This document shows, piece after piece, positions 17,253 to 63,197 of a stretch of DNA of 64,000 bases. This stretch comes from Rossellomorea marisflavi (GTDB lineage Bacteria > Bacillota > Bacilli > Bacillales > Bacillaceae_B). The stretch's first letter is position 1. The number at the start of each line of letters is the position of its first letter. A model generated the notes under the pieces. The model saw only the letters and a list, made by a program, of their open reading frames with translations. It ran no database searches and was not told the DNA's origin. Where the stretch lies: positions 2,964,001 through 3,028,000 of the forward strand of contig NZ_CP081870.1 in NCBI RefSeq assembly GCF_022170785.1, read 5' to 3'. Position numbers and translations under genes: made by a program.

Positions 17253-17561
17253 GGTCGCTCTCCCTTTCTTACGATCGTTCATGGTTGTCGATCAGTTGTT
17301 TCCTTTTACTTGAAGTATACACGAATTGGCGGAGCACTTCTATGATTGGGGCTTTGGGGAGGGGTTCAGTTCACTTTTCATAAAGAGTGTACTTTCTTAT
17401 TGGATCCCAAGTCCTGTTTAGGATGAGGAGCGCGGTTGGGAAGTGGACCGTTTCATTGCGCTACGGGCACTTGCTTTCCATGGGGAGGAAGTCGAGCCTC
17501 CTCGGCAGGTGTGCTGCCCCCTTATTACTAGACACCCCAATCCTAAAAGGAGGGGTTTTAA

Positions 17562-18077
17562 ATGAACAAGCACACCCGTACGTTTAAACTTCAACTGGCC
17601 AAGCGCTACTTGGAGGATGAAACGGTTAGTTTTCGAGATTTAGCTTCTCAAGAAGGCGTGGACGCTGCTGCGTTGGGTTATTGGGTCAAGTTGGTTCGCC
17701 ATCATGGCGATCAAGCCTTTTCTTTTCCCTATACATCCTATTCTCCTGCCTTTAAACTAAAGGTACTTCACTATATTACGGACAAGAATTACTCCATTCG
17801 AGAGGCATCTGCCTATTTCCACCTTCCTGATCCCTGTATTGTGCGCAGGTGGTTGAGAAAGTGGGAGAAAAGGGGACGAGATGCCTTCGAATCAAACGAA
17901 ATGAGGGCCTTGATGATGACTCCCAAACCACCCAATCAACATAAGAAATTAGAAGATATGACTCCCGAAGAGCTACGAGCACACGCCGCCTATTTAGAGA
18001 TGGAGAATGCTTATTTAAAAAAGCTGAGAGCCTTAGTTCAGGAGGAATCATCACCAAACAGATCAAAGCGAAAGTAG
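17562..18077 (+). CDS. IS3-family transposase OrfA (helix-turn-helix protein)
   Basis: 171-residue DNA-binding half of the transposase. Two helix-turn-helix segments are visible at about residues 10-45 (LAKRYLEDETVSFRDLASQEGVD) and 65-110 (YITDKNYSIREASAYFHLP). A leucine-rich coiled coil follows near 130-160 (PEELRAHAAYLEMENAYLKKL). It has a good ribosome site (AAAGGAGGGG). Near its end, AAAAAAG at 18017-18023 is in the A_AAA_AAG register that drives -1 frameshifting, which makes the OrfAB fusion that carries out transposition. Confidence 0.92.
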   Translation: MNKHTRTFKLQLAKRYLEDETVSFRDLASQEGVDAAALGYWVKLVRHHGDQAFSFPYTSYSPAFKLKVLHYITDKNYSIREASAYFHLPDPCIVRRWLRKWEKRGRDAFESNEMRALMMTPKPPNQHKKLEDMTPEELRAHAAYLEMENAYLKKLRALVQEESSPNRSKRK

Positions 18078-18103
18078 TATTTGAACTAAGGAATGCGTTC
18101 CCG

Positions 18104-18934
18104 GTGATTCAGCTCATTAAAGTAGCGAACCTCCCTAGAAGCACCTATTACTTCATCAAAAAACAGTGGGACCAACCGGATCCTGATCGAAAATGGAAAA
18201 GAAGAATTGGATTGATCTTTCGCCGGCATTCAGGCCGTTATGGCTACCGTCGGATTACGGATGCACTCCAGGCAAAAGGGTATGACATCAATAAAAAGAA
18301 AGTCATTCGCATTATGAAAGCCTTAGGGCTCCAGTGCCTGGTAAGAAAAAAGAAATACCGGTCTTATGAAGGGGAAGTTGGAAAAGCGGCGCCCAACACC
18401 CTTGACCGAAAGTTCATGGCATCGAAACCGAACCAAAAATGGGTAACGGATGTGACAGAATTCAAGATTGCCGGACAGAAACTGTACTTGTCCGCGATGT
18501 TAGACCTGTTTAATCGAGAGATCATTACGTACACGCTTCACACGAAACCTAGCTTTGATTTAGTGGAAACGATGTTACTTCAAGGGGTCGAACGTCTACG
18601 TGAAGGTGATGACCTTCTCCTTCACTCTGATCAGGGCTGGCACTATCGCATGCCTAAGTACCGAAGGATACTCAAGGACCATCACATCACTCAGAGTATG
18701 TCTCGCAAGGGAAACTGTTATGACAACGCCGTGATGGAGAATTTCTTTGGCATCATGAAATCGGAGTTTCTCTACAGAGAAACCTTTCGGAACCTCAAGG
18801 AGTTCCACATTAAATTAGAAGAATACATGAATTACTACAACCACTTGCGAATCAAGTCTACGCTCGGTAAAAAGAGCCCGGTAGAATACCGACTGTACAC
18901 ACAACGAATCAATCAAAAAGTGGGTGTCCAATAA
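18104..18934 (+). CDS. IS3-family transposase OrfB (DDE integrase domain)
   Basis: Catalytic half of the transposase, in the -1 frame relative to OrfA. The frame is open back to the slippery site at 18023, so the working protein is probably the OrfAB fusion spanning 17562-18934. An ATG-like separate start at 18104 gives 276 residues. The region about 25-75 is the HTH_21 type domain (RRHSGRYGYRRITDALQAKG). The integrase core has its DDE triad in WVTDVTEF, LHSDQGWHY and NAVMENFFGIMKSE. No disruption is seen. Confidence 0.93.
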   Translation: MIQLIKVANLPRSTYYFIKKQWDQPDPDRKWKRRIGLIFRRHSGRYGYRRITDALQAKGYDINKKKVIRIMKALGLQCLVRKKKYRSYEGEVGKAAPNTLDRKFMASKPNQKWVTDVTEFKIAGQKLYLSAMLDLFNREIITYTLHTKPSFDLVETMLLQGVERLREGDDLLLHSDQGWHYRMPKYRRILKDHHITQSMSRKGNCYDNAVMENFFGIMKSEFLYRETFRNLKEFHIKLEEYMNYYNHLRIKSTLGKKSPVEYRLYTQRINQKVGVQ

Positions 18935-19111
18935 TTTGGGTCCAGTGCACAGGCCTGCGGGGTCTCGATCATCCCTCTTTTCCCATAGGAGTCAAGCGCC
19001 CTTCGCTTCATTCCACTCTTTGGTAGTTGATCATTGTGTACTCTTTCTACAATGGGGTGTGCGGGTATTCCCCTACTATGGGACAGGATATCAGGTAAAT
19101 CATTTTCGGTT

Positions 19112-19369
19112 CCTTTCAAGGATTGGGGTATCAGGAGAAAGTAGACCGTTCCATTACGCTTCGGGCACTTGCTTTCCACGGGGAGGAAGTCGAGCTTCCT
19201 CGGCTGCGCCTGCGGGATCTCGGTCTTTCCTCTATTCCCGTTGGAGTCAAGTGCCCTTCGCTCCATTCCACTCTTTGGTGGTTCAATATTGTGCGCTCTT
19301 TCTTCATTGGGGTGTGCGGTATTTATCTTACTGTGGGACTATCTAATGAATCGCTTTAGGTTTCTTTAA
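19112..19369. repeat. Structured intergenic repeat, copy B (tandem to copy A)
   Basis: Second tandem unit of about 260 bp, closely similar to copy A over its whole length, including flanks (ccactctttggtggtt, ggggtgtgcgg). The outer stem gggcacttg (19163-19171) / caagtgccc (19248-19256) is a perfect 9-bp match. The inner stem is cacggg / cccgtt. No gene. The stretch 19370-19514 that follows, up to the trxA terminator, shows nothing I can identify. Confidence 0.75.
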
Positions 19370-19514
19370 TTCTTTTTTGATTTTCAGAAGGAATGTGGAC
19401 CGCTTTTTCACTCTGAATATTTCTCGTATTTAAAGGATAAAACGCCTGTCTAAATCAAACGGATTTGCATCATCCTTCACATAATGTTCCCCATACCAAT
19501 TGGTTTAAATAAAT

Positions 19515-19550
19515 CAAAAAAGCATCCGGCTTTGGGCCGGATGCTTTTTT
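19515..19550. terminator. Terminator of trxA
   Basis: Perfect 9-bp stem gcatccggc / gccggatgc flanked by A and T runs, so it can act in both directions. On the minus strand it lies 9 bp past the trxA stop. Confidence 0.92.
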
Positions 19551-19559
19551 GTGGCGTGC

Positions 19560-19874
19560 TTACGCGTGTTTGTTGACTAGTTCAGCAAGTGCTTCTTTCG
19601 GTTGGAAACCGATGACTTTATCTACGACTTCGCCGTCTTTTAGGATAACGAGAGTCGGGATGCTCATTACGCCGTATTTTCCTGCTGTTTCTTGGTTTTC
19701 GTCTACGTCTACTTTGACGATTTTAACTTTTTCGCCCATTTCGCTGTCCAATTCTTCAAGTACAGGAGCGATCATTTTACAAGGTCCACACCATGGAGCC
19801 CAGAAGTCCGCAAGTACGAGACCAGAGTTTGTTTCAGCTGTGAAGCTTTGATCAGTTGCATGTGTAATAGCCAT
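19560..19874 (-). CDS. trxA: Thioredoxin
   Basis: 104-residue cytoplasmic dithiol reductant. It donates electrons to ribonucleotide reductase, peroxidases and methionine sulfoxide reductases. The active site WCGPC is at residues 28-32. The cis-proline segment SIPTLVI is near 70-76. GGGAGG lies upstream of the ATG. It is monocistronic, between uvrC and etfA as in B. subtilis. Confidence 0.98.
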   Translation of the reverse strand: MAITHATDQSFTAETNSGLVLADFWAPWCGPCKMIAPVLEELDSEMGEKVKIVKVDVDENQETAGKYGVMSIPTLVILKDGEVVDKVIGFQPKEALAELVNKHA

Positions 19875-19994
19875 TTAAATGTGCCTCCCAAATCTTAAAA
19901 TGTATCGTAAGTATATCACCGTAACCGGTAGGATGCTATAAATCTGCTCGTAGCTACTTTCCCCCTGCCGGTAGAGGTTTATACCCCATTCCAT

Positions 19995-20028
19995 GAAAAT
20001 AAGGAGCAAGCATCCGCCACTCCTTATT
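19995..20028 (-). terminator. Probable terminator of the fad-etf operon
   Basis: Perfect 9-bp stem aataaggag (19998-20006) / ctccttatt (20020-20028). It is followed on the minus strand by only a short T stretch. It lies about 70 bp past the etfA stop. Confidence 0.6.
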
Positions 20029-20100
20029 CTTCTTTTCTTATCCTATGTGTTCATGCGGTGAAATTCCACCCTGACACCCAGTCCTTTTTACAGGGAGTGA

Positions 20101-21081
20101 TCAGGAAGAAGAAACTTTCAGCTTTTTGAACTCTTCCGTGAGGAGTGGTACCACTTCAAAGAGGTCCCCTACGATCCCGTAGTCGGCTACATTGAAGATG
20201 TTCGCTTCCGGGTCTTTGTTGATGGCGACAATGACCTTGGAATTGGACATTCCGGCTAGATGCTGAATCGCTCCGGAAATTCCGCAGGCGATGTAAAGGT
20301 CCGGTGTGACGACTTTACCGGTTTGACCGATCTGGAGGGAATAATCACAGTAGTCGGCATCACATGCACCCCTTGAGGCCCCGACTGCACCGCCCAGTAC
20401 GTCGGCGAGTTCTTTGAGGGGGTTGAACCCATCCTCACTCTTCACGCCACGTCCTCCTGCGATGATGACTTTCGCTTCTGACAAGTCGACCCCTTCGCTT
20501 GCTTTGCGGACGACATCCTTGATGATCGTTCGCAGATTCTTGATTTCAACGGATAAGGAGGCCACATCACCTGTGCGGGACTCATCCTTGGCCAATGGTT
20601 CGATATTATTCGGGCGTATCGTCGCAAAGATGACTCCGTCCGTTACAATCTTTTTCTCGAAGGCTTTTCCAGAATAGATCGGTCTGGTGAAAACAAGATT
20701 CCCTCCTGCGAGGTCCAAGTCCGTTGCATCGGATACAAGACCGGTCTTCAGCTTGCCTGCGAGCTTCGGTGAAAGATCCTTCCCGAGTGCCGTATGGCCG
20801 AAGATGATCCCCTCTGGGGATTCCTGTCCGATCACTGCCATCAACGCCTGTGAATAGCCATCCGGTGTATATTGAGCCAATTTTTCATCCTCAACAGTGA
20901 TGACACGGTCAGCTCCGTATTGAATCAACTCTTCCCCGAGGCTGCTCACCGATTGGCCGACGAGCACGCCTACGACTTCTCCGCCTTCCGCTACCGTCTT
21001 CGCTGCCGCAATGGCCTCGAAAGATACATTACGCAATGATCCGTCCCGAACTTCACCAAGTACTACTACTTTTCTTGCCAT
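20101..21081 (-). CDS. etfA: Electron transfer flavoprotein alpha subunit
   Basis: 326 residues. With EtfB it accepts electrons from acyl-CoA dehydrogenases and passes them toward the menaquinone pool. The C-terminal FAD-binding domain is clear: GGRGVKSEDGFNPLKELADVLGGAVGASRGACD at about 205-240 and the family signature ISGAIQHLAGMSNSKVIVAINKDPEANIFNVADYGIVGD at about 265-303. It is the last gene of fadR-fadB-etfB-etfA. A GGGGG run lies upstream of the ATG, 37 bp after etfB. Confidence 0.97.
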   Translation of the reverse strand: MARKVVVLGEVRDGSLRNVSFEAIAAAKTVAEGGEVVGVLVGQSVSSLGEELIQYGADRVITVEDEKLAQYTPDGYSQALMAVIGQESPEGIIFGHTALGKDLSPKLAGKLKTGLVSDATDLDLAGGNLVFTRPIYSGKAFEKKIVTDGVIFATIRPNNIEPLAKDESRTGDVASLSVEIKNLRTIIKDVVRKASEGVDLSEAKVIIAGGRGVKSEDGFNPLKELADVLGGAVGASRGACDADYCDYSLQIGQTGKVVTPDLYIACGISGAIQHLAGMSNSKVIVAINKDPEANIFNVADYGIVGDLFEVVPLLTEEFKKLKVSSS

Positions 21082-21118
21082 GCTTATAACCCCCTGATTG
21101 TATTGGTATGCTGGTCGA

Positions 21119-21892
21119 TTAGATGACTTTCGCTTCCGTGCGGAGAAGCTGTACCAGTTCGCTCACCTGTACGGCTACATCTCCTTCGAGCACCCTGCCG
21201 GCCTCTTTTTTCGGCGGAAGATACATTTCGATTGTTTTCGTTTTCGCTTCCACGTCCTCTTCTTCCAAATCAAGATCGTCCAATTCAAGCTCTTCGAGAG
21301 GCTTTTTCTTGGCTTTCATGATTCCTGGAAGTGAAGGGTAGCGCGGCTCATTCAACCCTTGCTGCGCTGTTACAAGTAGGGGAAGGGACGTTTCGATCAC
21401 TTCCGAATCCCCTTCAACGTCACGCGTCACGGTTACGGTTTCACCAGCGATTTCAAGCTTTGTGATGGTGGTGACAAACGGGATATCCAGTTGCTCTGCC
21501 ACCCTTGGCCCAACCTGTCCGGATCCGCCGTCGATGGCCACATTGCCCGCAAGGATCAGATCGACTTCCTGATCTTTCAGGTATTGCGCCAGGATCGTCG
21601 CAGTCGTGAACTGGTCACCATGGTCGAGATCATCTTCTGTATTGATGAGGACGGCTTTATCGGCCCCCATGGCCAAAGCGGTCCTGAGCTGCTTCTCGCT
21701 CTCTTCCCCTCCAACTGTGATAACGGTTACATCTCCGCCGTGATTGTCACGGACCTGGATGGCTTCTTCCACGGCATATTCATCATAAGGATTGATGATG
21801 AATTCGGCGCCGTCTTCCGCTATGCGCCCATTCTGGATCGAGATCTTCTCTTCCGTGTCAAACGTTCTTTTCAACAATACATAGATGTTCAT
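21119..21892 (-). CDS. etfB: Electron transfer flavoprotein beta subunit
   Basis: 257 residues. The AMP-binding partner of EtfA. The family signature at about residues 160-190 is recognisable (VTRDVEGDSEVIETSLPLLVTAQQGLNEPRYPSLPGIMKAKKKPL). The N-terminal MNIYVLLKRTFDTEEKI and NPYDEYAVEEAIQ are also typical. It has GGAGGGA upstream of the ATG. It is separated from fadB by 128 bp containing a strong hairpin at 21989-22014, which may set different expression of the two parts of the operon. Confidence 0.97.
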   Translation of the reverse strand: MNIYVLLKRTFDTEEKISIQNGRIAEDGAEFIINPYDEYAVEEAIQVRDNHGGDVTVITVGGEESEKQLRTALAMGADKAVLINTEDDLDHGDQFTTATILAQYLKDQEVDLILAGNVAIDGGSGQVGPRVAEQLDIPFVTTITKLEIAGETVTVTRDVEGDSEVIETSLPLLVTAQQGLNEPRYPSLPGIMKAKKKPLEELELDDLDLEEEDVEAKTKTIEMYLPPKKEAGRVLEGDVAVQVSELVQLLRTEAKVI

Positions 21893-21988
21893 TCTGCAGT
21901 CCCTCCTGGTATTTGACTATGATAATCGAAACAATGTTTTAAATACAGCATCTCTTAGGAAGATTCGGACAATTACGTTCCGAAGAAT

Positions 21989-22014
21989 GGATAGCGGATG
22001 TACACCCGCTATCC
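21989..22014 (-). other. Hairpin between fadB and etfB
   Basis: Perfect 9-bp stem ggatagcgg / ccgctatcc with an 8-nt loop and no T run, just past the fadB stop. It is more likely an mRNA processing or stability element, or an attenuator, than a simple terminator. The role is inferred. Confidence 0.5.
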
Positions 22015-22020
22015 TGGAAC

Positions 22021-22791
22021 CTACCCTTTGAAATGGGGTTCGCGTTTTTCAATGAAGGCTGATATCCCTTCCTTGGCATCCTCTGAGACGAAGATTTCAC
22101 CGAACATATCGGCTTCACGTTTCACGCCTGCATAGAATCGGTCATCTTTTGTGTAGCTGAGCAATTCGATAGCAGCCTTCATGGCCACGGGACTCTTCTT
22201 GGCGATTTTTGCCGCAAGCTCCGAAGCCTTTTCAAAAAGCTCCTCTTCAGGATACGCTTTATTGGCAAGGCCCCATTGTACCGCTTCGACACCAGAGATC
22301 GGCTCACTTGTCAGGAGCATCTCCGCTGCCTTGGCGCGTCCTACGAATTTAGGCAGACGCTGTGAACCGGCGAAACCTGGCACAAGGCCGAGCTGTAGTT
22401 CAGGAAGGCCGAGCTTTGCGTTTTCACTCACAAGACGGATGTGACATCCCATGGCGAGCTCGAGTCCGCCTCCCAGTGCAGCGCCGTGAATGGCGGCAAT
22501 GATCGGTTTCGGGAAGTTTTCCATGCGCTCGAACACTTCCTGCCCCCGTCCGGCAAGCTTCGAGAACTCCTCTCCGGTCTCGATGGTGGTGAATTCCTTG
22601 ATATCGGCTCCCGCAGAGAAGAATCGACCTTCTCCCTTCAAGAGGATGACCCGGACGTCCCGGTTCCCCTCAAGCTCATTCAATAGAGCATCTATTTCAG
22701 AAATGAGCCCGCTTGCCAACGCATTGGCAGGGGGTCTCTGAATGAGCACGGATGCTACATTCCCTTCCAGTGTCCACGAAAGATTCTCCAT
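22021..22791 (-). CDS. fadB: Enoyl-CoA hydratase (beta-oxidation)
   Basis: 256-residue crotonase-fold enzyme that hydrates trans-2-enoyl-CoA. The oxyanion-hole segments are GRFFSAGADIKEF (about residues 54-66) and AIHGAALGGGLELAMGCHIRLV (about 99-120), with catalytic glutamates in LELAMGC and GLPELQLGLVPG. I chose the ATG at 22789-22791. AGGGGG sits 6 bp upstream, and the fadR stop codon (TGA) lies just before it, so the two genes are probably translationally coupled. The ATG two codons earlier abuts the ribosome site. Confidence 0.94.
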   Translation of the reverse strand: MENLSWTLEGNVASVLIQRPPANALASGLISEIDALLNELEGNRDVRVILLKGEGRFFSAGADIKEFTTIETGEEFSKLAGRGQEVFERMENFPKPIIAAIHGAALGGGLELAMGCHIRLVSENAKLGLPELQLGLVPGFAGSQRLPKFVGRAKAAEMLLTSEPISGVEAVQWGLANKAYPEEELFEKASELAAKIAKKSPVAMKAAIELLSYTKDDRFYAGVKREADMFGEIFVSEDAKEGISAFIEKREPHFKG

Positions 22792-22793
22792 TT

Positions 22794-23399: not shown

Positions 23400-23426
23400 A
23401 GGTTTTTGACCTGCCTTATAGAATAA

Positions 23427-23444
23427 TGAATGACCATTCATTCA
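23427..23444. promoter_or_regulatory. FadR operator
   Basis: The 18-bp sequence TGAATGACCATTCATTCA matches the B. subtilis FadR consensus TGAATGAMTANTCATTCA at all but one position. It lies just downstream of the -10 box of the fadR promoter, where bound repressor would block initiation. Confidence 0.88.
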
Positions 23445-23451
23445 TGTTTCT

Positions 23452-23480
23452 ATATTATAAGGTTCTCCTGTGATTGTCAA
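23452..23480 (-). promoter_or_regulatory. Promoter of fadR-fadB-etfBA
   Basis: Consensus -35 TTGACA (23475-23480) with a -10 region TATAATAT. The best spacing (17 bp) uses TAATAT at 23452-23457. The FadR box follows immediately. Confidence 0.8.
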
Positions 23481-23501
23481 CAGCCTGTACCATCCGCCAA
23501 C

Positions 23502-23526: not shown

Positions 23527-23532
23527 AATAGT

Positions 23533-25230: not shown

Positions 25231-25274
25231 ACTGATCCCTCCCGTCTAATTGTTTGAAAATTTATTCTATTCCC

Positions 25275-32071: not shown

Positions 32072-32271
32072 ATATAACAGATCACTCAATATACGAAGAA
32101 AGATCCACTTTAAAAAGGGTCCGTGCCTCTCCGCTCCAGGCAGCCGCTTTCCACGGGGCGTGCAGTGAGCCGCTTTGGCAGGCCTGCAGGGTCTCACCCT
32201 GCCCGCTTTTCCCGTTGGAGTCGGCTGCCTTCCGCTCCGGGGGATTTTCGGATAGAAGTAGTCCGTTATAT
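32072..32271. repeat. Structured intergenic repeat, copy C
   Basis: About 200 bp between the convergent rnhC and pheT. The ends are imperfect inverted repeats (atataacagatcact at the left, its near-complement ending gttatat at the right; 12 of 15 match). The outer stem ggcagccg (32139-32146) / cggctgcc (32222-32229) is perfect. The inner stem cacggg/cccgtt and the shared blocks CTTTCC, GTGAGCC, GGTCTCAC and TTTTCCC..GGAGTC are as in the other copies. The outer-arm sequence is unrelated to that of copies A/B and D/E. Confidence 0.75.
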
Positions 32272-36291: not shown

Positions 36292-36547
36292 AAAAAAACC
36301 CCATCCCGGAAAGGGACGAGGTTTGATCGCGGTACCACCCTTATAAGCAGGCAGCGTTCGCCCACTCACTTCATTCGGATAACGGCATACGCCGGTACAT
36401 CATTACATTGCTTGGGCAATGGTCCCGATGCCAACTCGAGAGGTGAAATTTCACAGCTGTCCTTCATAAGAGTGCTTTCAGTCGAGGCACTCTCTCCCTG
36501 GAGGAATTCCAGATGCTACTTTCCTCTTTCAACGTTTTTCGTATATG
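36292..36547 (-). promoter_or_regulatory. T-box riboswitch of pheST (phenylalanine)
   Basis: The minus strand carries the T-box sequence GGGTGGTACCGCG (near 36328-36340) followed by a terminator with arms 36299-36307 and 36313-36321 and seven T. Stem I upstream has a candidate specifier codon TTC (rc of 36445-36447) in the expected bulge context. Uncharged tRNA-Phe should bind and favour the antiterminator, raising pheST transcription. Confidence 0.95.
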
Positions 36548-42729: not shown

Positions 42730-42936
42730 CAAGGTAATTTAAAAGAATACGCGGTATCGGTTTGCAGCACCCGACCTTCATTTCAGAAACAAAAAAGATG
42801 CGAGTGTCGAAACACCCGCATCTGATTATAAAGCACATCGCTTAATTATCATGAAAGTTACCTGGTAACTGCAAAACGCGTCATTCAGGTGAGAAGCGGG
42901 ATGCCTCTACTTGTACCAAACTGTATTCAATTCACC
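42730..42936 (-). promoter_or_regulatory. L20-type leader of infC-rpmI-rplT
   Basis: About 200-nt leader ending in a terminator with arms 42796-42807 and 42812-42823 (agatgcgagtgt / acacccgcatct) and six T on the minus strand. Position and layout match the B. subtilis L20 leader, in which L20 binding favours termination. Details of the L20-binding fold are not resolved by eye. Confidence 0.8.
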
Positions 42937-45063: not shown

Positions 45064-45343
45064 AAAACAAAAAACCCCGTCTCTCCGTAAATATACGAAG
45101 GGACGAGGTTGTACTCGCGGTTCCACCCAACTTTTCATCCCCATCACGGGAATGACTTCATTGTCTTGATAACGACGTTTCGCCGTCGATGACTACTGGG
45201 GATAGCCCCGTTCGCAATCGAAGTTCAGAGGTGGTCAATTCATCCTTGCTGATAGGAAGCTTGCAGCCATTCGGCTTCCCTCTCTGTAATCCCGTCCGGA
45301 AGATTGTTGTCCTCATCATAACCTGTTTGTATGCACTTAGTAT
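45064..45343 (-). promoter_or_regulatory. T-box riboswitch of thrS (threonine)
   Basis: On the minus strand, GGGTGGAACCGCG (near 45114-45126) is followed by a terminator hairpin (ccccgtct with aggacgggg-type complement, 45075-45109) and T runs. Stem I contains GAATTGACCACC with an ACC codon at 45230-45235, the expected threonine specifier. Uncharged tRNA-Thr should relieve termination. Confidence 0.94.
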
Positions 45344-46419: not shown

Positions 46420-46520
46420 ATGTGGGTCTTCCCATCGTTCCCTTGCGAGACGGGGTATGCGTGATCGTAGTCGGCTGGCATGCTGCTCTTTCCTCTGGAG
46501 TCTTCCGATCAACCGCAGGC
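46420..46520. repeat. Decayed remnant of the structured repeat
   Basis: The stretch ending TGGAGTCTTCCGATCAACCGC (about 46496-46515) matches the right part of copy D with an internal deletion. CATGTGGGTCTTCCC may be the left part. The stems no longer pair well. The region 46245-46549 around it has no gene. Confidence 0.5.
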
Positions 46521-46549
46521 ACTTCTGTAATCATTGGACAATTGAAAAA

Positions 46550-46855
46550 GAGGATGGGACAAAACTAAAAGAGGCCCCTTTAATGCCGAACACGATCAGT
46601 ATAGGATCTTACTACCGCTCATGATCTCCGTGCAAGACTTCGCTTTCCGCGGGTAGCCCGTGAGCCTCCTCGGCACGCCTCCGGGGTCTCACATCAGCTA
46701 CTCTTCCCGCTGGAGTCTTCGTCTTACACTCCGATCAACCGCTGGAAACGATGAAATTTAAATGTTCATTAAACGAATTTAAAACCCGAATCATTTGCTT
46801 TATCGTAGGCACGATTCGGGTTTTACTATGACTAAAACATATTTGTCTTAGCCTC
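46550..46855. repeat. Structured intergenic repeat, copy D (about 306 bp, MITE-like)
   Basis: The ends are imperfect inverted repeats (GAGGATGGGACAAA at the left; the complement of the right end reads GAGGCTAAGACAAA; 11 of 14 match). The core outer stem is gtgcaagac (46630-46638) / gtcttacac (46721-46729) with one mismatch. The inner stem is cgcggg/cccgct. GTGAG/CTCAC forms a second arm. The right third carries AACCCGAATC...GATTCGGGTT with T on both sides, which can act as a terminator 30-100 bp past dnaI. No ORF. Same length and build as copy E. Confidence 0.8.
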
Positions 46856-46881
46856 TTCGCTACACGGTTGCACAAGCCACT

Positions 46882-47817
46882 CTATTCCCGTCTGTTACGT
46901 CCATCGATCAGAACGGGTGCGGCCAGGTATTTGATCCTTTCCATGATCCTCGCGGCTTTTAGTTTTTCCTCTTCCCCGCGCTGTGAATAGGTAAGGTGAT
47001 GGGTCAACTCGCTATGATTGAAGTTGGAGGTGAAGAAGGTCGGCAGGTTTTCAAGCATCCTGTACTGCAGGATCGTACCGAGGATTTCATCCCGCCCCCA
47101 ACTTGACATCGTTTCCGCCCCGATATCATCGAGCATGAGGATCGGCGCCGTTTTGACGGCATCCAGTTTTTCATTGGTTGTATGATCACCGAGGGACTGC
47201 TTGATCTCGCGGAAGAACTCCGGAACATAGACAATCATGGACGAGATCTTCTTCTCGGCGAGCTCGTTGGCGATCGCACCGAGGAGATACGACTTCCCTA
47301 CACCGAACTTTCCGTAGAAATAAAGGCCCTTCATCTTCTTGCCTTCTTCGTAATCGCGTACGAAGGCCATGGCCTGACGGATTGCTTCCACCCTCCCCTT
47401 GGAGTCGGGCTCAAGTTCATCGAAAGAGGCATGAAGGATATCTTTCGGCACGTATAAACTTTTGATCAAACGCTGGGAGCTTGTCCGTTCGTCGTGCACG
47501 ACTTTCCTCGGACAACGATGATACTCGATATCGATGACACGTCCCCTCACAACAAGATGGGGCTCATACCCTTCCATCATATTCTTGCATTCAGCCAGGG
47601 AAGGACATCCGCTGCATTCCTTACTCTGGGAGATGTATTCATATAATTTCATCAGATTCGCATCGATCACATCCCCAGGTACATCCTCCTTCCTGACGAA
47701 ATCCTTCACATCGGGGTTCGCCAGGATCTCTTTTCTCATGGCGTCATACCGCTCTTGAAAAGAACCGGATGCAGCAAGCCTCTTGAGTGTATGGTTGATT
47801 CTTTCCATCTCCTTCAC
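46882..47817 (-). CDS. dnaI: Primosomal protein DnaI (helicase loader)
   Basis: 311 residues, the B. subtilis length. AAA+ ATPase that loads the replicative helicase onto DNA with DnaB and DnaD. The N-terminal helicase-binding domain holds a cysteine zinc site (CSGCPSLAECKNMMEGYEPHLV, about 67-88, and YHRCPRKV). Walker A is GKFGVGKSY near 165-173. Walker B is ILMLDDIGAETMSSW near 225-240. The start is GTG at 47815-47817, adjoining the dnaB stop. An ATG three codons later is also possible. It is the last gene of nrdR-dnaB-dnaI. Confidence 0.96.
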   Translation of the reverse strand: MKEMERINHTLKRLAASGSFQERYDAMRKEILANPDVKDFVRKEDVPGDVIDANLMKLYEYISQSKECSGCPSLAECKNMMEGYEPHLVVRGRVIDIEYHRCPRKVVHDERTSSQRLIKSLYVPKDILHASFDELEPDSKGRVEAIRQAMAFVRDYEEGKKMKGLYFYGKFGVGKSYLLGAIANELAEKKISSMIVYVPEFFREIKQSLGDHTTNEKLDAVKTAPILMLDDIGAETMSSWGRDEILGTILQYRMLENLPTFFTSNFNHSELTHHLTYSQRGEEEKLKAARIMERIKYLAAPVLIDGRNRRE

Positions 47818-57193: not shown

Positions 57194-57391
57194 GGCGGTA
57201 CCTCCTGTACGTTCATCACATAAGGATGAACCTTCTCTATACCCATTCTACCATGACCGGGATTGAAAGGAAAAATCCCCACCCCTGACCGCCATGAGGG
57301 ACACGGTGTCCGGCCCTGCCCATCGTGCTGAAAACGGGTGAGGACCCTCCCTTCCATACTGGCTAACGGCTGGAGTCTCCCATCGCACAAC

Positions 57392-57416
57392 AAAAGCCTC
57401 CGGACAGGAGGCTTTT
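57392..57416 (-). terminator. Terminator of hflK-hflC
   Basis: Perfect 10-bp stem aaaagcctcc (57392-57401) / ggaggctttt (57407-57416). On the minus strand it ends in TTTTG. The rest of 57194-57391 shows nothing I can identify. Confidence 0.85.
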
Positions 57417-57419
57417 CGA

Positions 57420-58355
57420 TCATTCAGTATAGCCCATCAGCAGGCGGGCATAAGGTGAATCGGATGGAAGGACGATCACAGTTTCATCGTCGATCGTCTT
57501 TTTGTAGGTTTCAAGCGTACGGTAAAGATCATAGAACTCAGGGTCTTTAGAGAATGATTTATTATAAATCACCGCCGCTTCGGATTCCCCCTCAGCCCTG
57601 ATCACATTGGCCTCCGTTTCTGCTTTTGCGATGAGCTCCTTCACTTCACGGTCCGTTTCGGCCGTGATGCTCTGTTTCTCCGCATCCCCCTGGGAAAGGT
57701 ACTCCTGCGCCTTGGATTCCCGCTCCGAAATCATCCTGGTATAGACGGACTTCTCATTGGCCTCAGGCAGGTCGGTGCGTTTGATCCGCACATCTTTGAC
57801 CACCACCCCATACTGCTGGTTTTCAAGAAGTTCATTGACCTTATCGGTGATCTGGTCGTTCAGGCTCCCTCTCGATGACTTCTCATCATTGATGACCTCT
57901 TCATATTCCAGTTTACCAAGCTCTGCCCTGACCACGGAATAGATGAAATCCTCCATCTTCGCCTCTGCGTTGATGACATTCCGTGCATTGGAGATCATCT
58001 TCAAAGGATCGGTGATCTGCCATACGGCATAGTTATCGATGAGCATCCGCTTTTTATCCTTTGTATTGATCTCAGCTTCTGTCACATCCGATGTCATCTG
58101 CCGCTTCGTCAACGTCGTCACTGATTGTATGAAGGGAACCTTCACCTTCAGGCCCGGCTCTTCGTCGATCCGCACCACTTCACCGAACTGGCGGACAACC
58201 TTGTATTCTCCTTCTTTCACAATATATACGGAGGTGAAGGCAACCAGGAGAAGTGCAAGGAGTACCACCAGGAATATCCCTGTCCTGACGTAAGGCTTCC
58301 AGTCTGTCGGAGGCCGCTCTTTCTTCTCGAATTGATAGACGTTAGGATTACTCAT
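57420..58355 (-). CDS. hflC: SPFH-domain protein HflC
   Basis: 311 residues. Membrane-anchored band-7 protein that, with HflK, forms a large cage around the FtsH protease in other bacteria. One N-terminal membrane helix (TGIFLVVLLALLLVAFTSVYIV, about 26-47), then the SPFH domain (KEGEYKVVRQFGEVVRIDEEPGLKVKVPFIQSV) and a long alpha-helical C-terminus (EYLSQGDAEKQSITAETDREVKELIAKAETEANVIRAEGESEAAVIYNKSF). Its start overlaps the hflK stop (ATGAGTAA), so the pair is translationally coupled. It is not present at this place in B. subtilis. Confidence 0.92.
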   Translation of the reverse strand: MSNPNVYQFEKKERPPTDWKPYVRTGIFLVVLLALLLVAFTSVYIVKEGEYKVVRQFGEVVRIDEEPGLKVKVPFIQSVTTLTKRQMTSDVTEAEINTKDKKRMLIDNYAVWQITDPLKMISNARNVINAEAKMEDFIYSVVRAELGKLEYEEVINDEKSSRGSLNDQITDKVNELLENQQYGVVVKDVRIKRTDLPEANEKSVYTRMISERESKAQEYLSQGDAEKQSITAETDREVKELIAKAETEANVIRAEGESEAAVIYNKSFSKDPEFYDLYRTLETYKKTIDDETVIVLPSDSPYARLLMGYTE

Positions 58356-59313
58356 CGGCCTTCGCCTCCTTTTCTTCCGCCTCCGCCTTCGCTTTCCCTT
58401 CCATCGGTCGGATCGGGAAGTGCTTCAGGGTTTCCCCGTCATCTTTCATAATGTAGATCTCGGCATTTGGCAGGACGGTTTCAAGGCTTTCAAGAACCAG
58501 ACGTTTCCGTGTGATATCCGGGTTGGTTTTGTATTGATCATAGAGTTTATCGAAAACGGCCACATCCCCACGTGCCTGTTCGATCCTTGCAATCTTGTCG
58601 CCCTTTGCCTTGGACATGATCGCCTTCTTCTCTCCCTGTGCTTCATTCATGCGCTGATTCTGATACTTTTTGGCTTCATTGGTTTTTGTATTTTTCATTT
58701 CACGCGCATCGGTTACGGCCGTGAAGGAGGAGCGCACATCTTCATTCGGCAGTTCCACGTCCTGCAGCTTTACACCGATGATGGAAATCCCTATATCATA
58801 GTCTTCTATCAGATTGGTCAGAAGGTCTCTGACATCGCCTTCGATCTTGGCCTTTCCCGAGGTCAATGCATCATCGATCAGCGAACTGCCGATGATGCTC
58901 CTGATGGATGAGGATGTGGCATCATAGAGAATTTCCTTCGGGTTTTCGGCATTGAAGAGATAGCCTTCGGGATCGGTGATTTTCCACTGCACAACTAAAT
59001 CGGCCAGGACGATGTATTCATCACCCGTGATCATTTTGGTTTCTTTCGGGAAATTTTTGATTTCCCCTTCGCTTTCTTCATACCCGAATTGAAGTGTGAA
59101 CGTTTCTTTTGATAGCGTTTCTACCTGTTGGATCGGCCAAGGCATCTTAAAGTGCAGGCCCGGTTCCACTACGGGATCCCCTGCCTTCCCGAATGTAAGG
59201 ACAAGCGCCTGTTCCGACTCATCCACCGTGTACCACGACGTCACCAGTACCGCGATGAGGATCAGTGCTCCCAACACCATCCCCGTCACCTTATACGTTT
59301 GCTTCAAGCTCAT
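58348..59313 (-). CDS. hflK: SPFH-domain protein HflK
   Basis: 321 residues from the ATG at 59311-59313 (GGGGGG upstream). One membrane helix near the N-terminus (VTGMVLGALILIAVLVTSWYTV), then the SPFH domain (TFGKAGDPVVEPGLHFKMPWPIQQVETLSKETFTLQFG) and a helical C-terminus ending in a charged tail. It is the first gene of hflK-hflC. It lies between phoR and polA, an insertion relative to B. subtilis, where phoR and polA are adjacent. Confidence 0.92.
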   Translation of the reverse strand: MSLKQTYKVTGMVLGALILIAVLVTSWYTVDESEQALVLTFGKAGDPVVEPGLHFKMPWPIQQVETLSKETFTLQFGYEESEGEIKNFPKETKMITGDEYIVLADLVVQWKITDPEGYLFNAENPKEILYDATSSSIRSIIGSSLIDDALTSGKAKIEGDVRDLLTNLIEDYDIGISIIGVKLQDVELPNEDVRSSFTAVTDAREMKNTKTNEAKKYQNQRMNEAQGEKKAIMSKAKGDKIARIEQARGDVAVFDKLYDQYKTNPDITRKRLVLESLETVLPNAEIYIMKDDGETLKHFPIRPMEGKAKAEAEEKEAKADE

Positions 59314-59410
59314 GAAATCCCCCCATTTTGTCTGACCCATTCTACTAATCTATACGGTCCTTCCCCTGAAAAGTTTCAGGAATATTACAATGGTGGGAAA
59401 AATTCCATGC

Positions 59411-59444
59411 AAAAAGACGAGAACGGGGTCGGTTCTCGTCTTTT
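59411..59444. terminator. Terminator of phoPR
   Basis: Perfect 13-bp stem aaaagacgagaac (59412-59424) / gttctcgtctttt (59432-59444) with T runs on both strands. It lies between phoR and hflK. Confidence 0.9.
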
Positions 59445-59539
59445 CATCAACACCTTGGATGAAGGGGTTTCACTTAGTATCGTATCACCGGTATGTTAAC
59501 CGGAATTTAACACTTTGTAAATGGTTTGTAAAAAAACCA

Positions 59540-61327
59540 TCATTCCCCTTCATGGATGCCCTCATGAAATTGTTTGTTCAATAGGACCTTGAATGTCGTC
59601 CCCTGATTCAGTTCACTCTCGACTTCGATCTTCGCCTCATGGGCCTCCAGGATGTGCTTGACGATGGCAAGGCCCAGACCGGTTCCTCCAGAGTTCCGGC
59701 TCCTTGCTTTATCAACCCGATAGAAGCGTTCGAATATACGCGGAATCTCCTCTTGGGCGATTCCGATCCCGTTATCCTTTATGGAGACAAGCACTTGCTT
59801 GCCTGCATCCTCCACTCCGACTTCCACGATCCCGCCTTGGGGAGTGTAGGATATCGCATTGCTGATCAGGTTGATGAACACCTGCTTCAACCGGTAGCTG
59901 TCCACCTCTGCGAGGACCGGGGATTCATTGTGCACATCCAGGGTGATGCCCTTTTCCCTGGCACGCTCGTTCAGTATTGGTAAGATCTCTTCGATGAGAC
60001 CGGATATGGACTCCTTTTGAAGGGAGAGCTCGAACCCGCTCTTTTCCACTTTTGATAGCTCAAGGAGATCCTGGATCAGTGATTGAAGACGGTCGCTTTC
60101 CTTCAGGATGATGTCGAGGAAATTCCTCAAGGTGTCTTCATCCTTCATCGCCCCATCGAGGAGGGTTTCAGAGAAGCCTTTGATCGATGTGATCGGCGTC
60201 TTCAATTCATGCGACACATTGGCGACAAAATCTTTTCTCATCTGCTCGAGCTTTTTTAGTTCCGTGATATCATGGAAGACCACGACGATCCCTTTCCACA
60301 CATTGTTATGCCCGATGATCGGAGCCCCGTATACCTCGTAGTGCCTCCGCTCGATCTGGTAAGGAAGAAGGATCTGCTTCCGGACCCGCTTCTCTGTCAT
60401 GAAGATCTCCTCCACCAATCGATTCACCTCTTGAAAATGGATCACTTCATGATAGCGGACCTTCCGCAGGTCCTTTTCCTCCAAATCGAAAAATTCCCGG
60501 AAGGTGCGGTTGGTCAATACGATGAACCCGCGATGATCGATGAGGAGAAGGGCACTTCCCATATTTTCGATCAGGGTGGTGAGTCTGTCCTGCTGCATTT
60601 CCTGGGCATTGACCATTTCCTGAAGGTTACGGGCCAGGATATTGATCGATGAACTCAGCATGCTGGTCTCATCGAGTCGATCCTCGAAGGTCCTGGCACG
60701 ATAATTCCCTTTCGCAAGCTCCATGGCTACATTGGTGGCCGATTCAATCGGTTTTGTATATCGTACGGTGATCCTTGATCCCAGGATGATGATCAGAACA
60801 AGGGCGAGTACGAGGGAAATCGTCAGGACCAGCCAAATCTGCTGATTCCCTTCTTCGAATTCATCCACCTCGGTACTCATGATGAGGAGTCCGTCGGATT
60901 GATTCCCTTTCTGATTGAGGGGATACCAATAGTAACGGAACTCCCTGCCTTCATCGACCACCTTCTTGTGACGATCCTTCACATCCCAGTCATCCTTGAT
61001 GGATGCGATGATCTCCTTCTGCTTCTGATTCCCGAGGGAATTCGGTCTTTTCGTATCGTCAATGACCTTCCCGTCCTCATCCAGCAGGGTGATTCGAACA
61101 TCGAGAATATCGCTGAGCTCATTGATGATGGAAGGATTCGTTCCCTGGAGCGGTCCGTTTTCTTCTATTGAATTGGCAAGAAGTCTTGCTTCTTTCTGGA
61201 TCCTGGAGTTCAGCGTCTCCAGATAAAAATTCTTGAAGATTTGTCCAAGCAGAAGGCCCAGCCCGATCAACACGCCGATGATGAGGGTGATGAGCGCCAG
61301 AAGAAGCTTCGTCCTATACTTGGTCAT
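59540..61327 (-). CDS. phoR: Phosphate-responsive sensor histidine kinase PhoR
   Basis: 595 residues. Membrane sensor kinase for phosphate starvation. TM1 (LLLALITLIIGVLIGLGLLLG, about 8-28), an extracytoplasmic domain (about 30-170), TM2 (IWLVLTISLVLALVLIIILG, about 168-190), then HAMP, PAS (about 250-350, LTTLIENMGSALLLIDHRGFIVL), the dimerisation His in VSHELKTPITSIKGFSETLLDG, and the ATPase motifs NLISNAISYTP, DNGIGIAQEEIPRIFERFYR and GGTGLGLAIVKHI. It overlaps phoP by 4 bp (ATGA), indicating coupling. Confidence 0.96.
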   Translation of the reverse strand: MTKYRTKLLLALITLIIGVLIGLGLLLGQIFKNFYLETLNSRIQKEARLLANSIEENGPLQGTNPSIINELSDILDVRITLLDEDGKVIDDTKRPNSLGNQKQKEIIASIKDDWDVKDRHKKVVDEGREFRYYWYPLNQKGNQSDGLLIMSTEVDEFEEGNQQIWLVLTISLVLALVLIIILGSRITVRYTKPIESATNVAMELAKGNYRARTFEDRLDETSMLSSSINILARNLQEMVNAQEMQQDRLTTLIENMGSALLLIDHRGFIVLTNRTFREFFDLEEKDLRKVRYHEVIHFQEVNRLVEEIFMTEKRVRKQILLPYQIERRHYEVYGAPIIGHNNVWKGIVVVFHDITELKKLEQMRKDFVANVSHELKTPITSIKGFSETLLDGAMKDEDTLRNFLDIILKESDRLQSLIQDLLELSKVEKSGFELSLQKESISGLIEEILPILNERAREKGITLDVHNESPVLAEVDSYRLKQVFINLISNAISYTPQGGIVEVGVEDAGKQVLVSIKDNGIGIAQEEIPRIFERFYRVDKARSRNSGGTGLGLAIVKHILEAHEAKIEVESELNQGTTFKVLLNKQFHEGIHEGE

Positions 61328-62043
61328 GAGGATTTGGGACCCTCTAATTTATAGCCAAGACCCCTGATGGTCTTGATGTAAATCGGTTTCTTCGTATTGG
61401 TCTCGATTTTCTCACGGAGATGGCTGATATGCACATCCACGATCCTCGTGTCGCCTGCAAAATCATAATTCCACACGGCGCTCAAGAGCTGGTCTCTCGT
61501 CAACACTCTTCCCCGGTTGTCTGTCAGGTAGAGAAGAAGTTCAAATTCCTTCGGCGTCAGTTCAAGTAGTTCACCTTGGAAATACGCTTCATATTGTTCG
61601 GGGTACACTTTCAATTCTCCGACTTCCTTGTAGTCCACGTCTTGGCCTTCGGATTGTTCTTTCACGGCAGCGGATGCCTGGCTCCTTCTCAGGATCGCTT
61701 TCACCCTTGCCACTACTTCACGGGGACTGAAAGGTTTCGTCATATAGTCATCGGCACCGAGCTCAAGCCCCAGAACCTTATCGAACTCATCATCCTTAGC
61801 CGTCAGCATGAGGATCGGCGTACTGATCTTGCGCTGGCGCAGTTCTTTGCATACTTCGATCCCATCCATGGATGGAAGCATCAGATCAAGGATGATCAAA
61901 TCGGGTGATTCAGAGACGGCCTTATTCAAGCCTTCCTCCCCGTCATGTGCCGTCATGACAGCATAACCCGATTGTTCCAGGTTGTATTTTAACAATGTTG
62001 CGATCGATTGTTCATCATCCACTACCAGAATGTTTTTGCTCAT
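61324..62043 (-). CDS. phoP: Phosphate response regulator PhoP
   Basis: 239 residues. OmpR-type activator and repressor of the phosphate regulon. Receiver domain with acidic pair at 9-10 (VVDDEQSI), phosphoacceptor aspartate in DLIILDLMLPSMDG (D53), and lysine in LTAKDD. The winged-helix DNA-binding domain is about 140-235 (TPKEFELLLYLTDNRGRVLTRDQLLSAVWNYDFAGDTRIVDVHISHLREKIE). TTGGAGG precedes the ATG. An A/T-rich promoter region with TATAAT-like boxes lies near 62110-62140 but I could not settle one promoter. Confidence 0.97.
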   Translation of the reverse strand: MSKNILVVDDEQSIATLLKYNLEQSGYAVMTAHDGEEGLNKAVSESPDLIILDLMLPSMDGIEVCKELRQRKISTPILMLTAKDDEFDKVLGLELGADDYMTKPFSPREVVARVKAILRRSQASAAVKEQSEGQDVDYKEVGELKVYPEQYEAYFQGELLELTPKEFELLLYLTDNRGRVLTRDQLLSAVWNYDFAGDTRIVDVHISHLREKIETNTKKPIYIKTIRGLGYKLEGPKSS

Positions 62044-62261
62044 TGATTATAGGCCTCCAAGAGAATGAATTTACCCCTTCATCCATTAGCATTATGTAAT
62101 TGTACTTTTATTATAATATAATTTTGTCTTGTTACCACTACTATTCGGCGTTTAGAGAATAGTCGGGCTAAATGTCCCCTCTTCCATCCGGCATTTCAGA
62201 AAGGATGCGTAGGAATGGGACCGCGCCCATTTTGAGTGTCGGGAGGGTTCGCGACTCAGAA

Positions 62262-62286
62262 TAAAAAAACTCCCTCTAAAGGGAGC
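62262..62286 (-). terminator. Terminator of the MaoC-like gene
   Basis: Stem ctccct (62270-62275) / agggag (62280-62285) and then seven T on the minus strand, directly past the stop. Confidence 0.85.
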
Positions 62287-62289
62287 GGC

Positions 62290-62766
62290 TCAAAAATTTT
62301 CCAACGCGTGACTATTCATCTTTTCCAACCGATGTGGCGGGCATACGCTGATTCTTCCCGTCACGACCCTTTCATCGTCTTCGTTGTCTGCAGTGACTTC
62401 GATGATGACGGAATGGGCCTTCAGATCGATCTCCTTCACTTCGAACAGGAAGCGGACGGTGGCATAGTGATAGACTGGCTTATGGAATTGGATCGATTGT
62501 TCGGTGATATGGGAGCCGGGTCCTGGCAGGTATTTTGAGACAGCTGATGTGATGATTCCCGTCAGCATGATGGATGGGACGATCGGCTTCTTGAAAGGCG
62601 TTTGCGATGCATAGTCGTGCTGAATATATAAAGGATTGGCATCATTCGTCAAACCAAGATAGAGAAGGAGTTCATTGTCCTCGATCTTCTCTGTAAGCGT
62701 CAGCTTCTCACCAATGGTCATATCTTCGATTTTTCTTCCCGGTTTTCTTTTTTTACCCAGTAACAT
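62290..62766 (-). CDS. MaoC-like hot-dog-fold dehydratase
   Basis: 158 residues of the (R)-specific enoyl-CoA hydratase/MaoC family. The hydratase motif is recognisable at about residues 34-55 (LYLGLTNDANPLYIQHDYASQ) with the aspartate-asparagine-histidine positions expected for catalysis, and SIMLTGIITSAVSKYLPGPGSHI follows. It probably acts on an acyl-CoA or acyl-ACP double bond. The substrate is unknown. AGGAGGTG lies upstream of the ATG. It is a single gene between phoP and mdh, with palindromic sites in its promoter region. Confidence 0.88.
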   Translation of the reverse strand: MLLGKKRKPGRKIEDMTIGEKLTLTEKIEDNELLLYLGLTNDANPLYIQHDYASQTPFKKPIVPSIMLTGIITSAVSKYLPGPGSHITEQSIQFHKPVYHYATVRFLFEVKEIDLKAHSVIIEVTADNEDDERVVTGRISVCPPHRLEKMNSHALENF

Positions 62767-62781
62767 GGACGCACCTCCTGA

Positions 62782-62817
62782 ATGTAAACACTTACATTTT
62801 TAAATAGTCTGTCTATT
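62782..62817. promoter_or_regulatory. Palindromes upstream of the MaoC-like gene
   Basis: Two inverted repeats: ATGTAA-N4-TTACAT (62782-62797) and AATAG-N5-CTATT (62803-62817). They lie in the leader or promoter region just before the ribosome site. They look like binding sites for a dimeric regulator. The regulator is unknown. Confidence 0.4.
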
Positions 62818-62894
62818 AATATAGTATCATTTCTATTGTGCCCAAACAAAGGACTTTTTAGTAGAATTTCAAAAGCGATTCAGTGCATGAAAAA

Positions 62895-63197
62895 AGGTCG
62901 TACAAAACGAAAAAGATGCCATGAAATGACGAACACAATCGTATAGTTTCTTTATACCGCTTATGATTTCCGTGCAAGACTTCGCTTTTCGCGGGTAGCC
63001 CGTGAGCCTCCTCGGCAGGCCTGAGGGGTCTCACATCAGCTACACTTCCCGCTGGAGTCTTCGTCTTGCACTCCAATCAACCGCTAGAAACGATAGAAAA
63101 ATGTTTGTGAAATAAATGAAAAAACCGAATTCATTTGCCTTATTTCAGACAAATAAATTCGGGTTTCACTATGACTGAACCATGTTTGTTCCAGCCT
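62895..63197. repeat. Structured intergenic repeat, copy E (about 303 bp, MITE-like)
   Basis: Closely parallels copy D from end to end. The outer stem gtgcaagac (62972-62980) / gtcttgcac (63063-63071) is perfect. The GTGAG/CTCAC arm and the inner stem cgcggg/cccgct are kept. Imperfect terminal inverted repeats (AGG..G.ACAAA). The right third has AAACCCGAATT...AATTCGG followed by TTTTTTC on the minus strand, a terminator-like hairpin just past mdh. No ORF. It fills the region between the MaoC-like gene and mdh, 12 bp from the mdh stop. Confidence 0.8.

What the first reader, a model, noticed from the sequence alone, without database searches (positions are those of the whole stretch)
17413..63197. 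A family of intergenic repeats whose stem arms covary between copies
Five copies (A 17413-19111 minus the IS, B 19112-19369, C 32072-32271, D 46550-46855, E 62895-63197) share short blocks: CTTTCC, GAGCC, GGTCTC and TTTTCCC..GGAGTC. The outer stems are unrelated in sequence but paired in each copy: gggcacttg/caag[c/t]gccc (A/B), ggcagccg/cggctgcc (C), gtgcaagac/gtctt[a/g]cac (D/E). The inner stem changes together as catggg/cccat, cacggg/cccgt and cgcggg/cccgc. This compensatory pattern is seen directly and means the folded form matters, either as an RNA or as a DNA hairpin used in mobility. Similar hairpin repeats may occur in other Bacillaceae, but I cannot name a described family.
Basis: seen in the sequence. 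Interest (0 to 1): 0.8.

Follow-up and report, generated by a model that had tools for sequence, protein, structure and literature searches.

The report
Hairpin repeats that replace gene terminators
The five hairpin repeats belong to a large family of bacterial DNA repeats whose stems change in matched pairs; one branch takes the place of gene-ending hairpins between genes, and a particular group of jumping genes lands in the repeats' loops.

Summary
The copies share a ~93-bp core: variable outer stem, CTTTCC, inner stem, GAGCC...GGTCTC, GGAGTC. A covariance model finds at least 170 copies in this Rossellomorea genome and matches 55 of 61 relatives. No Rfam family covers them. Without structure-fitting, 102 distinct arm pairs average 6.01 of 8 Watson-Crick pairs against 3.31 shuffled. 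G·T and A·C mismatches are about equally rare, so the arms show no RNA strand.

I name two kinds. Type I (A, B, C) forms arrays that are never divergent (19 convergent, 0 divergent neighbours). Type II (D, E) is ~300 bp, has inverted ends and its own terminator, and usually abuts a stop codon. Of ten loci where G027 is much shorter, six carry a clear stem-loop instead; both borders coincide at two.

The IS in copy A follows a rule: 21 of 21 homologues found at >=67% identity sit in a repeat's apical loop.

Best reading: mobile hairpin-forming DNA repeats, REP/EFAR-like, that settle on terminator hairpins and serve as landing pads for an IS3 clade. The enzyme that moves them is unknown.

The parts
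17465..17509 (+). Copy A (type I), left half of core: GGGCACTTG arm, CTTTCC, CATGGG, GAGCC, up to the apical loop
   Evidence: pairs with 18954-19001
17510..18949 (+). IS3-family insertion sequence (1440 bp) in the apical loop of copy A; OrfA 17562-18077 (HTH_Tnp_1, HTH_28), OrfB 18104-18934 (rve); target duplication CAGG 17506-17509/18950-18953
18954..19001 (+). Copy A, right half of core: GGGGTCTC, TTTTCCCAT, GGAGT, CAAGCGCCC arm
19163..19256 (+). Copy B (type I) core; tandem partner of A
   Evidence: 100.7 bits
32139..32229 (+). Copy C (type I) core; element shared with G034 and G027; G027 keeps a further outer stem (GTTCCTC/GAGGAAC)
46547..46857 (+). Copy D, whole type II element: inverted ends AAAGAGGATGGGACAAAAC...TTTGTCTTAGCCTCTT, core 46630-46729, own bidirectional terminator AAAACCCGAATC...GATTCGGGTTTT; lies 3' of a dnaI-like gene (46882-47817, -)
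46440..46535 (+). Decayed older type II copy immediately left of D (approximate limits, read by eye); in G027 a diverged element with its own terminator stands at this locus
62892..63197 (+). Copy E, whole type II element, core 62972-63071; its terminator lies 3' of the malate dehydrogenase gene (63210-63998, -)

Best explanation
A family of non-coding, hairpin-forming mobile DNA repeats. SHOWN: a long interrupted hairpin with invariant short blocks and freely varying but mostly complementary outer arms; at least 170 copies in this genome; local tandem arrays; a type II sub-kind that stands where relatives have an intrinsic terminator and brings its own; and an IS3 clade whose copies found here lie in the hairpin apex. 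INFERRED: (1) the element is recognised as a DNA hairpin or cruciform (arms only have to pair; CTTTCC, GAGCC/GGTCTC and GGAGTC are the sequence-read parts); (2) an enzyme acting in trans moves it to hairpin targets, chiefly intrinsic terminators, and in type II the inner part of the target hairpin is lost in the process while A/T-rich outer ends stay, so the element's own terminator takes over and the insertion does no harm; (3) arrays grow by local duplication; (4) IS elements that once used terminator loops specialised on this abundant, harmless landing pad.
For: Covariation, fitted and unfitted: 64 distinct left arms in the own genome; all four Watson-Crick types at several outer-stem positions. 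Extra outer stem across a symmetric TCCGCTNC/TCCGCTNC loop (4.71/7 against 3.96 shuffled, maximum 4.13 of 500).
Mobility of type II: sharp ends in 36 copies at unrelated sites. Of 18 type II or type II-like loci whose two flanks were matched in G027, 10 are more than 120 bp shorter there. At six of the ten G027 has a clear stem-loop instead (score 10-18): both borders coincide at 4065426 and 3159645, one border at 3061179, 3265221, 4153866 and 4227263. At 4065426, 22 of 29 other Rossellomorea loci, G034 and G027 among them, have a stem (score >=8) and no element word near the stop codon; at 3159645, 25 of 29. Two nested cases: a new type II element sits where an older one's terminator should be (D and 2954893).
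Type II lies against genes' 3' ends: right-hand gene convergent in 33 of 36; 24 of those 33 stop codons lie 129-145 bp from the core; 34 of 36 have a downstream stem of >=9 bp whose sequence varies.
IS: 21 of 21 homologues found at >=67% nt identity lie in repeat apices (19 with both flanks read, 2 with one; at most 6 candidates per genome were scored). In the OrfB tree 9 of the 11 repeat-targeting rows are one side of a supported branch (95/92), while four sister copies split terminator-like dyads.
DNA rather than RNA: G·T against A·C in unfitted arms with >=6 pairs 12:15.
Against: No transposase is linked to the repeats. The only Y1 transposase found in this genome has no repeat within ~1.5 kb, nor do 29 other RAYT-like loci. 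Six genomes have repeats without it (G041, G048, G049, G056, G057, G059), and G037, G051 and (a partial match) G036 have it without repeats. Exact two-sided replacement rests on two loci. At 3351706 no clear hairpin was found in G027; at 3567150 G027 has a core-less version. At 4065426 six of 29 loci show no stem at that threshold and G004 shows element-like sequence; at 3159645 G034 has a rearranged element-like sequence. No target duplication was seen for type II, and no empty site was obtained for type I, so type I mobility is inferred. Fixed T·G positions inside the core and lower predicted RNA energy on + for type I but on - for type II leave an RNA role open.
Confidence: 0.6

Rival explanations
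1. A structured RNA element (3'-UTR, attenuator or sRNA) selected for its RNA fold; spread is secondary.
For: Strong covariation and invariant internal-loop blocks across genera; fixed T·G positions would be G·U on +; type I folds at least as well as + RNA in 110 of 134 copies.
Against: Outer-stem G·T is not commoner than A·C (11:22 and 20:33 fitted; 12:15 unfitted); type II folds better on - (32 of 36); in 12 of 36 type II copies the left gene points away and the right gene's transcript should stop at the element's terminator before the core.
Confidence: 0.2
2. An ordinary MITE: type II is moved by a DDE transposase through its inverted ends; terminators are lost afterwards because they are redundant.
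For: Inverted ends and sharp borders in 36 copies; presence/absence between near relatives.
Against: No target duplication at the two clean sites, where the terminator is gone up to its A- and T-rich ends; the type I flank profile shows no such ends. No parent IS with these ends was looked for genome-wide.
Confidence: 0.25
3. REP/RAYT-type system: the Y1 transposase mobilises the hairpins as single strands.
For: RAYT-like matches, one to five per genome, in all 36 genus members and 52 of 61 genomes; hairpin shape and arrays as in BIMEs.
Against: None of 30 RAYT-like loci has a repeat within ~1.5 kb; presence does not track the repeats; no conserved GTAG or CGTC tag in the flank profile.
Confidence: 0.15
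4. The repeats do not move now: they are old residents changed by tandem duplication, gene conversion and palindrome correction, which would itself keep the arms complementary.
For: Elements with different arms stand near the mdh 3' end in several species; arrays share array-specific spacers (three arrays read).
Against: Type II stands in place of a terminator in G000 while G034 and G027 keep it at 4065426, so gain is recent at that site.
Confidence: 0.2

Closest known systems
REP/PU and BIMEs of enterobacteria and pseudomonads, with IS1397, ISKpn1, ISPsy8 (IS3) and IS621 (IS110) that target them (Tobes & Pareja 2006, PMC1525189; passages read)
   Same: Abundant intergenic palindromes, arrays with both orientations, IS3-family elements inserting specifically inside the palindrome.
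   Different: Core ~93 bp of several stems with covarying arms, against 20-40 bp; no RAYT found beside it; one side faces gene 3' ends. The word Bacillus occurs 0 times in that paper's main text.
EFAR of Enterococcus faecalis (recalled; the paper is not held; EFAR is only named in PMC3733652)
   Same: As recalled: palindromic miniature elements whose empty sites are unrelated stem-loops, most of the stem-loop being lost on insertion while parts of the stem stay at the ends.
   Different: Sequence relation not tested; size and block structure as recalled differ.
Bhal-1, B. halodurans stem-loop family (Cozzuto 2008, PMC2267715; one section and passages read)
   Same: 74 bp, 36 copies, type I (intergenic), conserved stem-loop, in a Bacillus host.
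   Different: Its sequence was not in the text seen; identity untested.
bcr1 of the B. cereus group (named in PMC2267715 and PMC3733652)
   Same: Structured repeat with mobile-element traits in Bacillus.
   Different: The title cited there calls it specific to the B. cereus group; sequence not compared.

Membership tests
REP (GTAG/CGTC-tagged) | 20-40 bp hairpin tagged by GTAG or CGTC | tested here: not met
   Core is ~93 bp with several stems; at the foot the other strand reads GCAG more often than GTAG (G at that place in 74% of 76 type I clusters)
REP (GTAG/CGTC-tagged) | RAYT gene flanked by the repeats | tested here: not met
   0 model hits in 30 RAYT-like loci and in L060
MITE | terminal inverted repeats | tested here: met
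   type II only
MITE | target-site duplication | tested here: not met
   none at the two clean empty/filled pairs
MITE | parent IS with the same ends | not tested
EFAR-like | insertion into and loss of a stem-loop target (recalled feature) | tested here: met
   type II in place of stem-loops: clear at six loci, both borders at two
EFAR-like | sequence homology to EFAR | not tested
   paper and sequence not held
IS1397-like palindrome-targeting IS | IS3 family | tested here: met
   OrfA HTH_Tnp_1, OrfB rve domains
IS1397-like palindrome-targeting IS | insertion inside the palindrome as the rule | tested here: met
   21 of 21 homologues found at >=67% nt identity over most of the IS; the two shorter, more distant hits (G042, G059) are not
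Any Rfam 15 family | covariance-model match | tested here: not met
   none on the repeats at gathering; with the lax threshold only a weak tsr24 hit (26.3 bits, gathering 50) over E and a mir-83 hit in E's terminator
Structured RNA | one-strand wobble signature | tested here: inconclusive
   G·T not commoner than A·C in arms; fixed T·G in core

The most novel reading that the evidence does not exclude
Mobile terminators: a class of mobile DNA whose target is a DNA secondary structure rather than a sequence. It swaps itself hairpin-for-hairpin for native intrinsic terminators, carries its own terminator so that the host loses nothing, can be replaced in turn by a newer copy, and has its own guild of IS3 elements that use the hairpin apex.
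Probability: 0.35. Interest if true: 0.85.

Novelty: new variant of a known kind. Interest (0 to 1): 0.64.

Why it matters
The family is abundant in Bacillaceae and reaches other Bacilli (96 of 398 genomes sampled in the class, 34 of 146 genera), yet it has no Rfam entry and I found no description of it by name in the library searched. Hairpin-for-hairpin replacement makes a testable case that mobile DNA can read structure instead of sequence and can turn over the terminators of ordinary genes, which shapes 3' ends genome-wide. The IS clade gives a natural series (terminator loops to repeat loops) for studying how a DDE transposase learns a structured target.

Tried and rejected
Rfam at both thresholds: no match to the repeats at gathering; the weak tsr24 and mir-83 hits over E were left as chance. 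RAYT as an adjacent driver: no repeat near 30 RAYT-like loci. RNA strand choice by folding energy: opposite answers for the two types. A literature hunt with repeat words as strings gave only papers on unrelated subjects (listings seen). Some families hit outside the order were first guessed to be Enterococcus (EFAR); the sequences do not show that, and their names are unknown. The dyad-run script failed to find IS ends in 16 of 49 loci, and its run length is a poor measure for insertions in the repeats, so it is used only for four terminator examples (L422, L427, L432, L434; runs >=9, which 8 of 2000 random places reach).

Limits: 170 is a lower bound (150 of 585 candidates scored; only 90 stretches searched). 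Neighbouring genes are ORFs of 90 aa or more, not annotation. A2 and A3 are fitted to the model; A2 holds the best 150 of 170 copies. For A3, 68 of the 120 pattern loci were searched, 28 hand-picked for spread and 40 taken as they came; several are Rossellomorea and some organisms recur. The pattern that fetched them fixes parts of the core, not the arms. At most 70 candidates per genome were scored, 10, 6 and 8. In one search, L428 and L442 (contig ends) were dropped before the tree. The type I/II filter leaves a few type II-like copies (e.g. L146, L147, L180) in type I.
Full report
What was claimed and what is there. The five copies exist at the stated places with the stated pairings. RNAalifold on the five gives one long hairpin. 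Cmsearch with a model of the five (R1) finds B, C, D and E in the window (A is split by an IS), 150 matches in the whole genome (150 of 585 candidates scored) and 170 in the 90 stretches fetched around them. No Rfam family reaches its gathering score on them.

Host and spread. Equal contig lengths identify relatives G001 as [Bacillus] enclensis SGD-1123, G010 as Rossellomorea aquimaris CH422a and G034 as R. marisflavi JCM 11544. Three window proteins are 98-100% identical in G034, so the window is a Rossellomorea close to R. marisflavi. R1 matches 55 of 61 relatives at E<=1e-4: all 36 of the genus and 19 of 25 from other genera. In the class it matches 96 of 398 genomes and 34 of 146 genera, some outside the order. 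Named hosts in the pattern scan include Neobacillus, Sutcliffiella, Niallia, Peribacillus, Mesobacillus, Heyndrickxia and Metabacillus.

Covariation. Fitted alignments: A2 (146 distinct rows, own genome) has 22 of 35 pairs with changes on both sides, score 0.351 against 0.143 shuffled (0 of 500 as high) and at most 0.101 when slid; its count of further pair types is weak (69 against 65.2, 32 of 500 as high). A3 (82 rows) has 21 of 35 pairs, score 0.230 against 0.076, slid at most 0.049. Because fitting leans towards the structure, arms were also taken 8 nt before GCTTTCC (or GATTTCC) and 8 nt after GGAGTC, without any structure. 102 distinct own pairs average 6.01 of 8 against 3.31 shuffled (maximum 3.71 of 200); 95 pairs from L181-L300 average 4.20 against 2.59 (maximum 2.92). 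Not every pair is good: 60 of the 102 and 15 of the 95 reach 7 of 8. A further outer stem lies beyond an 8-nt loop that has the same word, TCCGCTNC, on both sides (77 pairs, 4.71 of 7 against 3.96, maximum 4.13 of 500). It is perfect in some copies, e.g. GTTGATT/AATCAAC near mdh in G029.

RNA or DNA. If a transcript were the selected form, G·U should exceed A·C on that strand. In the outer stem G·T:A·C is 11:22 (A2), 20:33 (A3) and 12:15 in the unfitted arms with six or more pairs. Predicted RNA energy is lower on - in only 24 of 134 type I copies but in 32 of 36 type II copies. Against a pure DNA reading, some positions inside the core are fixed T·G. I lean to DNA but do not count the matter settled.

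Two kinds. Type I (134 of 170 by a sequence filter, which leaves a few type II-like copies in this class) has variable arms and conserved flanks (about ACCGTTCCKTTCCGCTGC before and TCCGCTYCAATCCACTCT after). It forms arrays: of 77 neighbouring pairs, 32 are ++, 26 are --, 19 convergent and 0 divergent, and 46 of the 58 same-direction spacings are 190-241 bp. In the three arrays read, the spacer is array-specific and duplicated with the hairpin. Type II (36) is ~300 bp and nearly uniform, with inverted ends AAAGAGGYTGGGACAAAAC...TTTTGTCCCAGCCTCTTT and a terminator whose stem itself varies between copies. In element orientation the right-hand gene is convergent in 33 of 36, and 24 of those 33 stop codons are 129-145 bp from the core, that is, against the element's end.

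Empty sites. Flanks of 31 clusters could be matched in the G027 sequence fetched. Of 18 type II or type II-like loci among them, 10 are more than 120 bp shorter in G027. At 4065426, G034 and G027 read AATTGAAA, a 22-nt stem-loop, TTTCAATT, where G000 reads AATTGAAA, the element, TTTCAATT. Since AATTGAAA and TTTCAATT pair with each other, the element took the inner part of the hairpin and left its A/T-rich foot. Among the 29 other loci there, 22 (with G034 and G027) have a stem of score >=8 near the stop codon and no element word, six have no such stem, and G004 has element-like sequence. At 3159645 G027 and others (25 of 29) have such a stem, G000 has the element, G005 has one of its own, G034 a rearranged element-like sequence, and two show neither. 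At 3061179, 3265221, 4153866 and 4227263 G027 has a clear stem-loop; one border coincides and the other is degenerate, truncated or diverged. At 3351706 no clear hairpin was found in G027, and at 3567150 G027 has a core-less version. At D and at 2954893 the newer element stands where an older one's terminator should be (read from alignments). 3' of mdh (named by NCBIfam) the trio relies on the element's stem, while 16 of the 27 other loci show another stem of score >=8 near the stop codon (contig-end loci included among the misses). Other type II loci are shared with G027, and E is decayed there, so the family is both old and recently active.

The IS. The IS in copy A gives 23 DNA matches, itself included, in 10 of 61 genomes (at most 6 candidates per genome scored). 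Of these, 21 at >=67% identity over most of their length (G000 1, G034 1, G027 4, G007 1, G029 1, G026 5, G016 2, G053 6) are all in the apical loop of a repeat, type I or II, in either orientation, with both flanks read in 19 and one in 2. The two shorter, more distant ones (G042, G059) are not. A protein search of 299 genomes of the order matched 38 and gave 30 loci, of which 11 are in repeats. In a tree of 28 OrfB, 9 of those 11 lie on one side of a supported branch, and the label needs 3 changes against 8.9 shuffled. Four of the others split a terminator-like dyad (L422, L427, L432, L434); the rest were not classified. This parallels IS1397, ISKpn1 and ISPsy8 in REP (PMC1525189, passages read).

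Driver. One Y1 transposase was found, between fliS-side flagellar genes and an hpf gene. Relatives occur in 52 of 61 genomes, but no repeat lies within ~1.5 kb of 30 of them, and presence of the two does not agree well. I therefore leave the mover open.

What is known. EFAR, as I recall it, also removes most of a stem-loop at its target; the paper is not held and PMC3733652 only names it. The statement that I found no earlier description rests on the listings of eight searches of an open-access library only.

Noticed in passing
L060/L061 (G000 C1:3594172-3594726): The only Y1 (IS200-like, RAYT-like) transposase found in this genome, 185 aa, between flagellar genes (fliS, fliD-like) and an hpf gene; one to five related matches in each of the 36 genus members.
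   Followed up: partly
window 46440-46535: Remains of an older type II repeat beside D, suggesting repeated replacement at one terminator site.
   Followed up: partly
G053 loci L398, L404, L407, L410, L412, L413: Six copies of a related IS in another genus, all in repeats with the same core blocks but different arms.
   Followed up: yes
window 36309-36541 and 45096-45328 (-): Two T-box leaders ~8.8 kb apart; also a lysine riboswitch at 15228-15406 and an L20 leader at 42786-42918, all ordinary Rfam matches.
   Followed up: no
L160, L172: The stretch holding the array differs in length between G000 and G027 (819 against 1666 bp, 1381 against 662 bp), suggesting changing copy number.
   Followed up: no
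window 62944-63205 (-): Weak Rfam match to S. aureus tsr24 sRNA (26.3 bits, gathering 50) over copy E; taken as chance but not examined.
   Followed up: no
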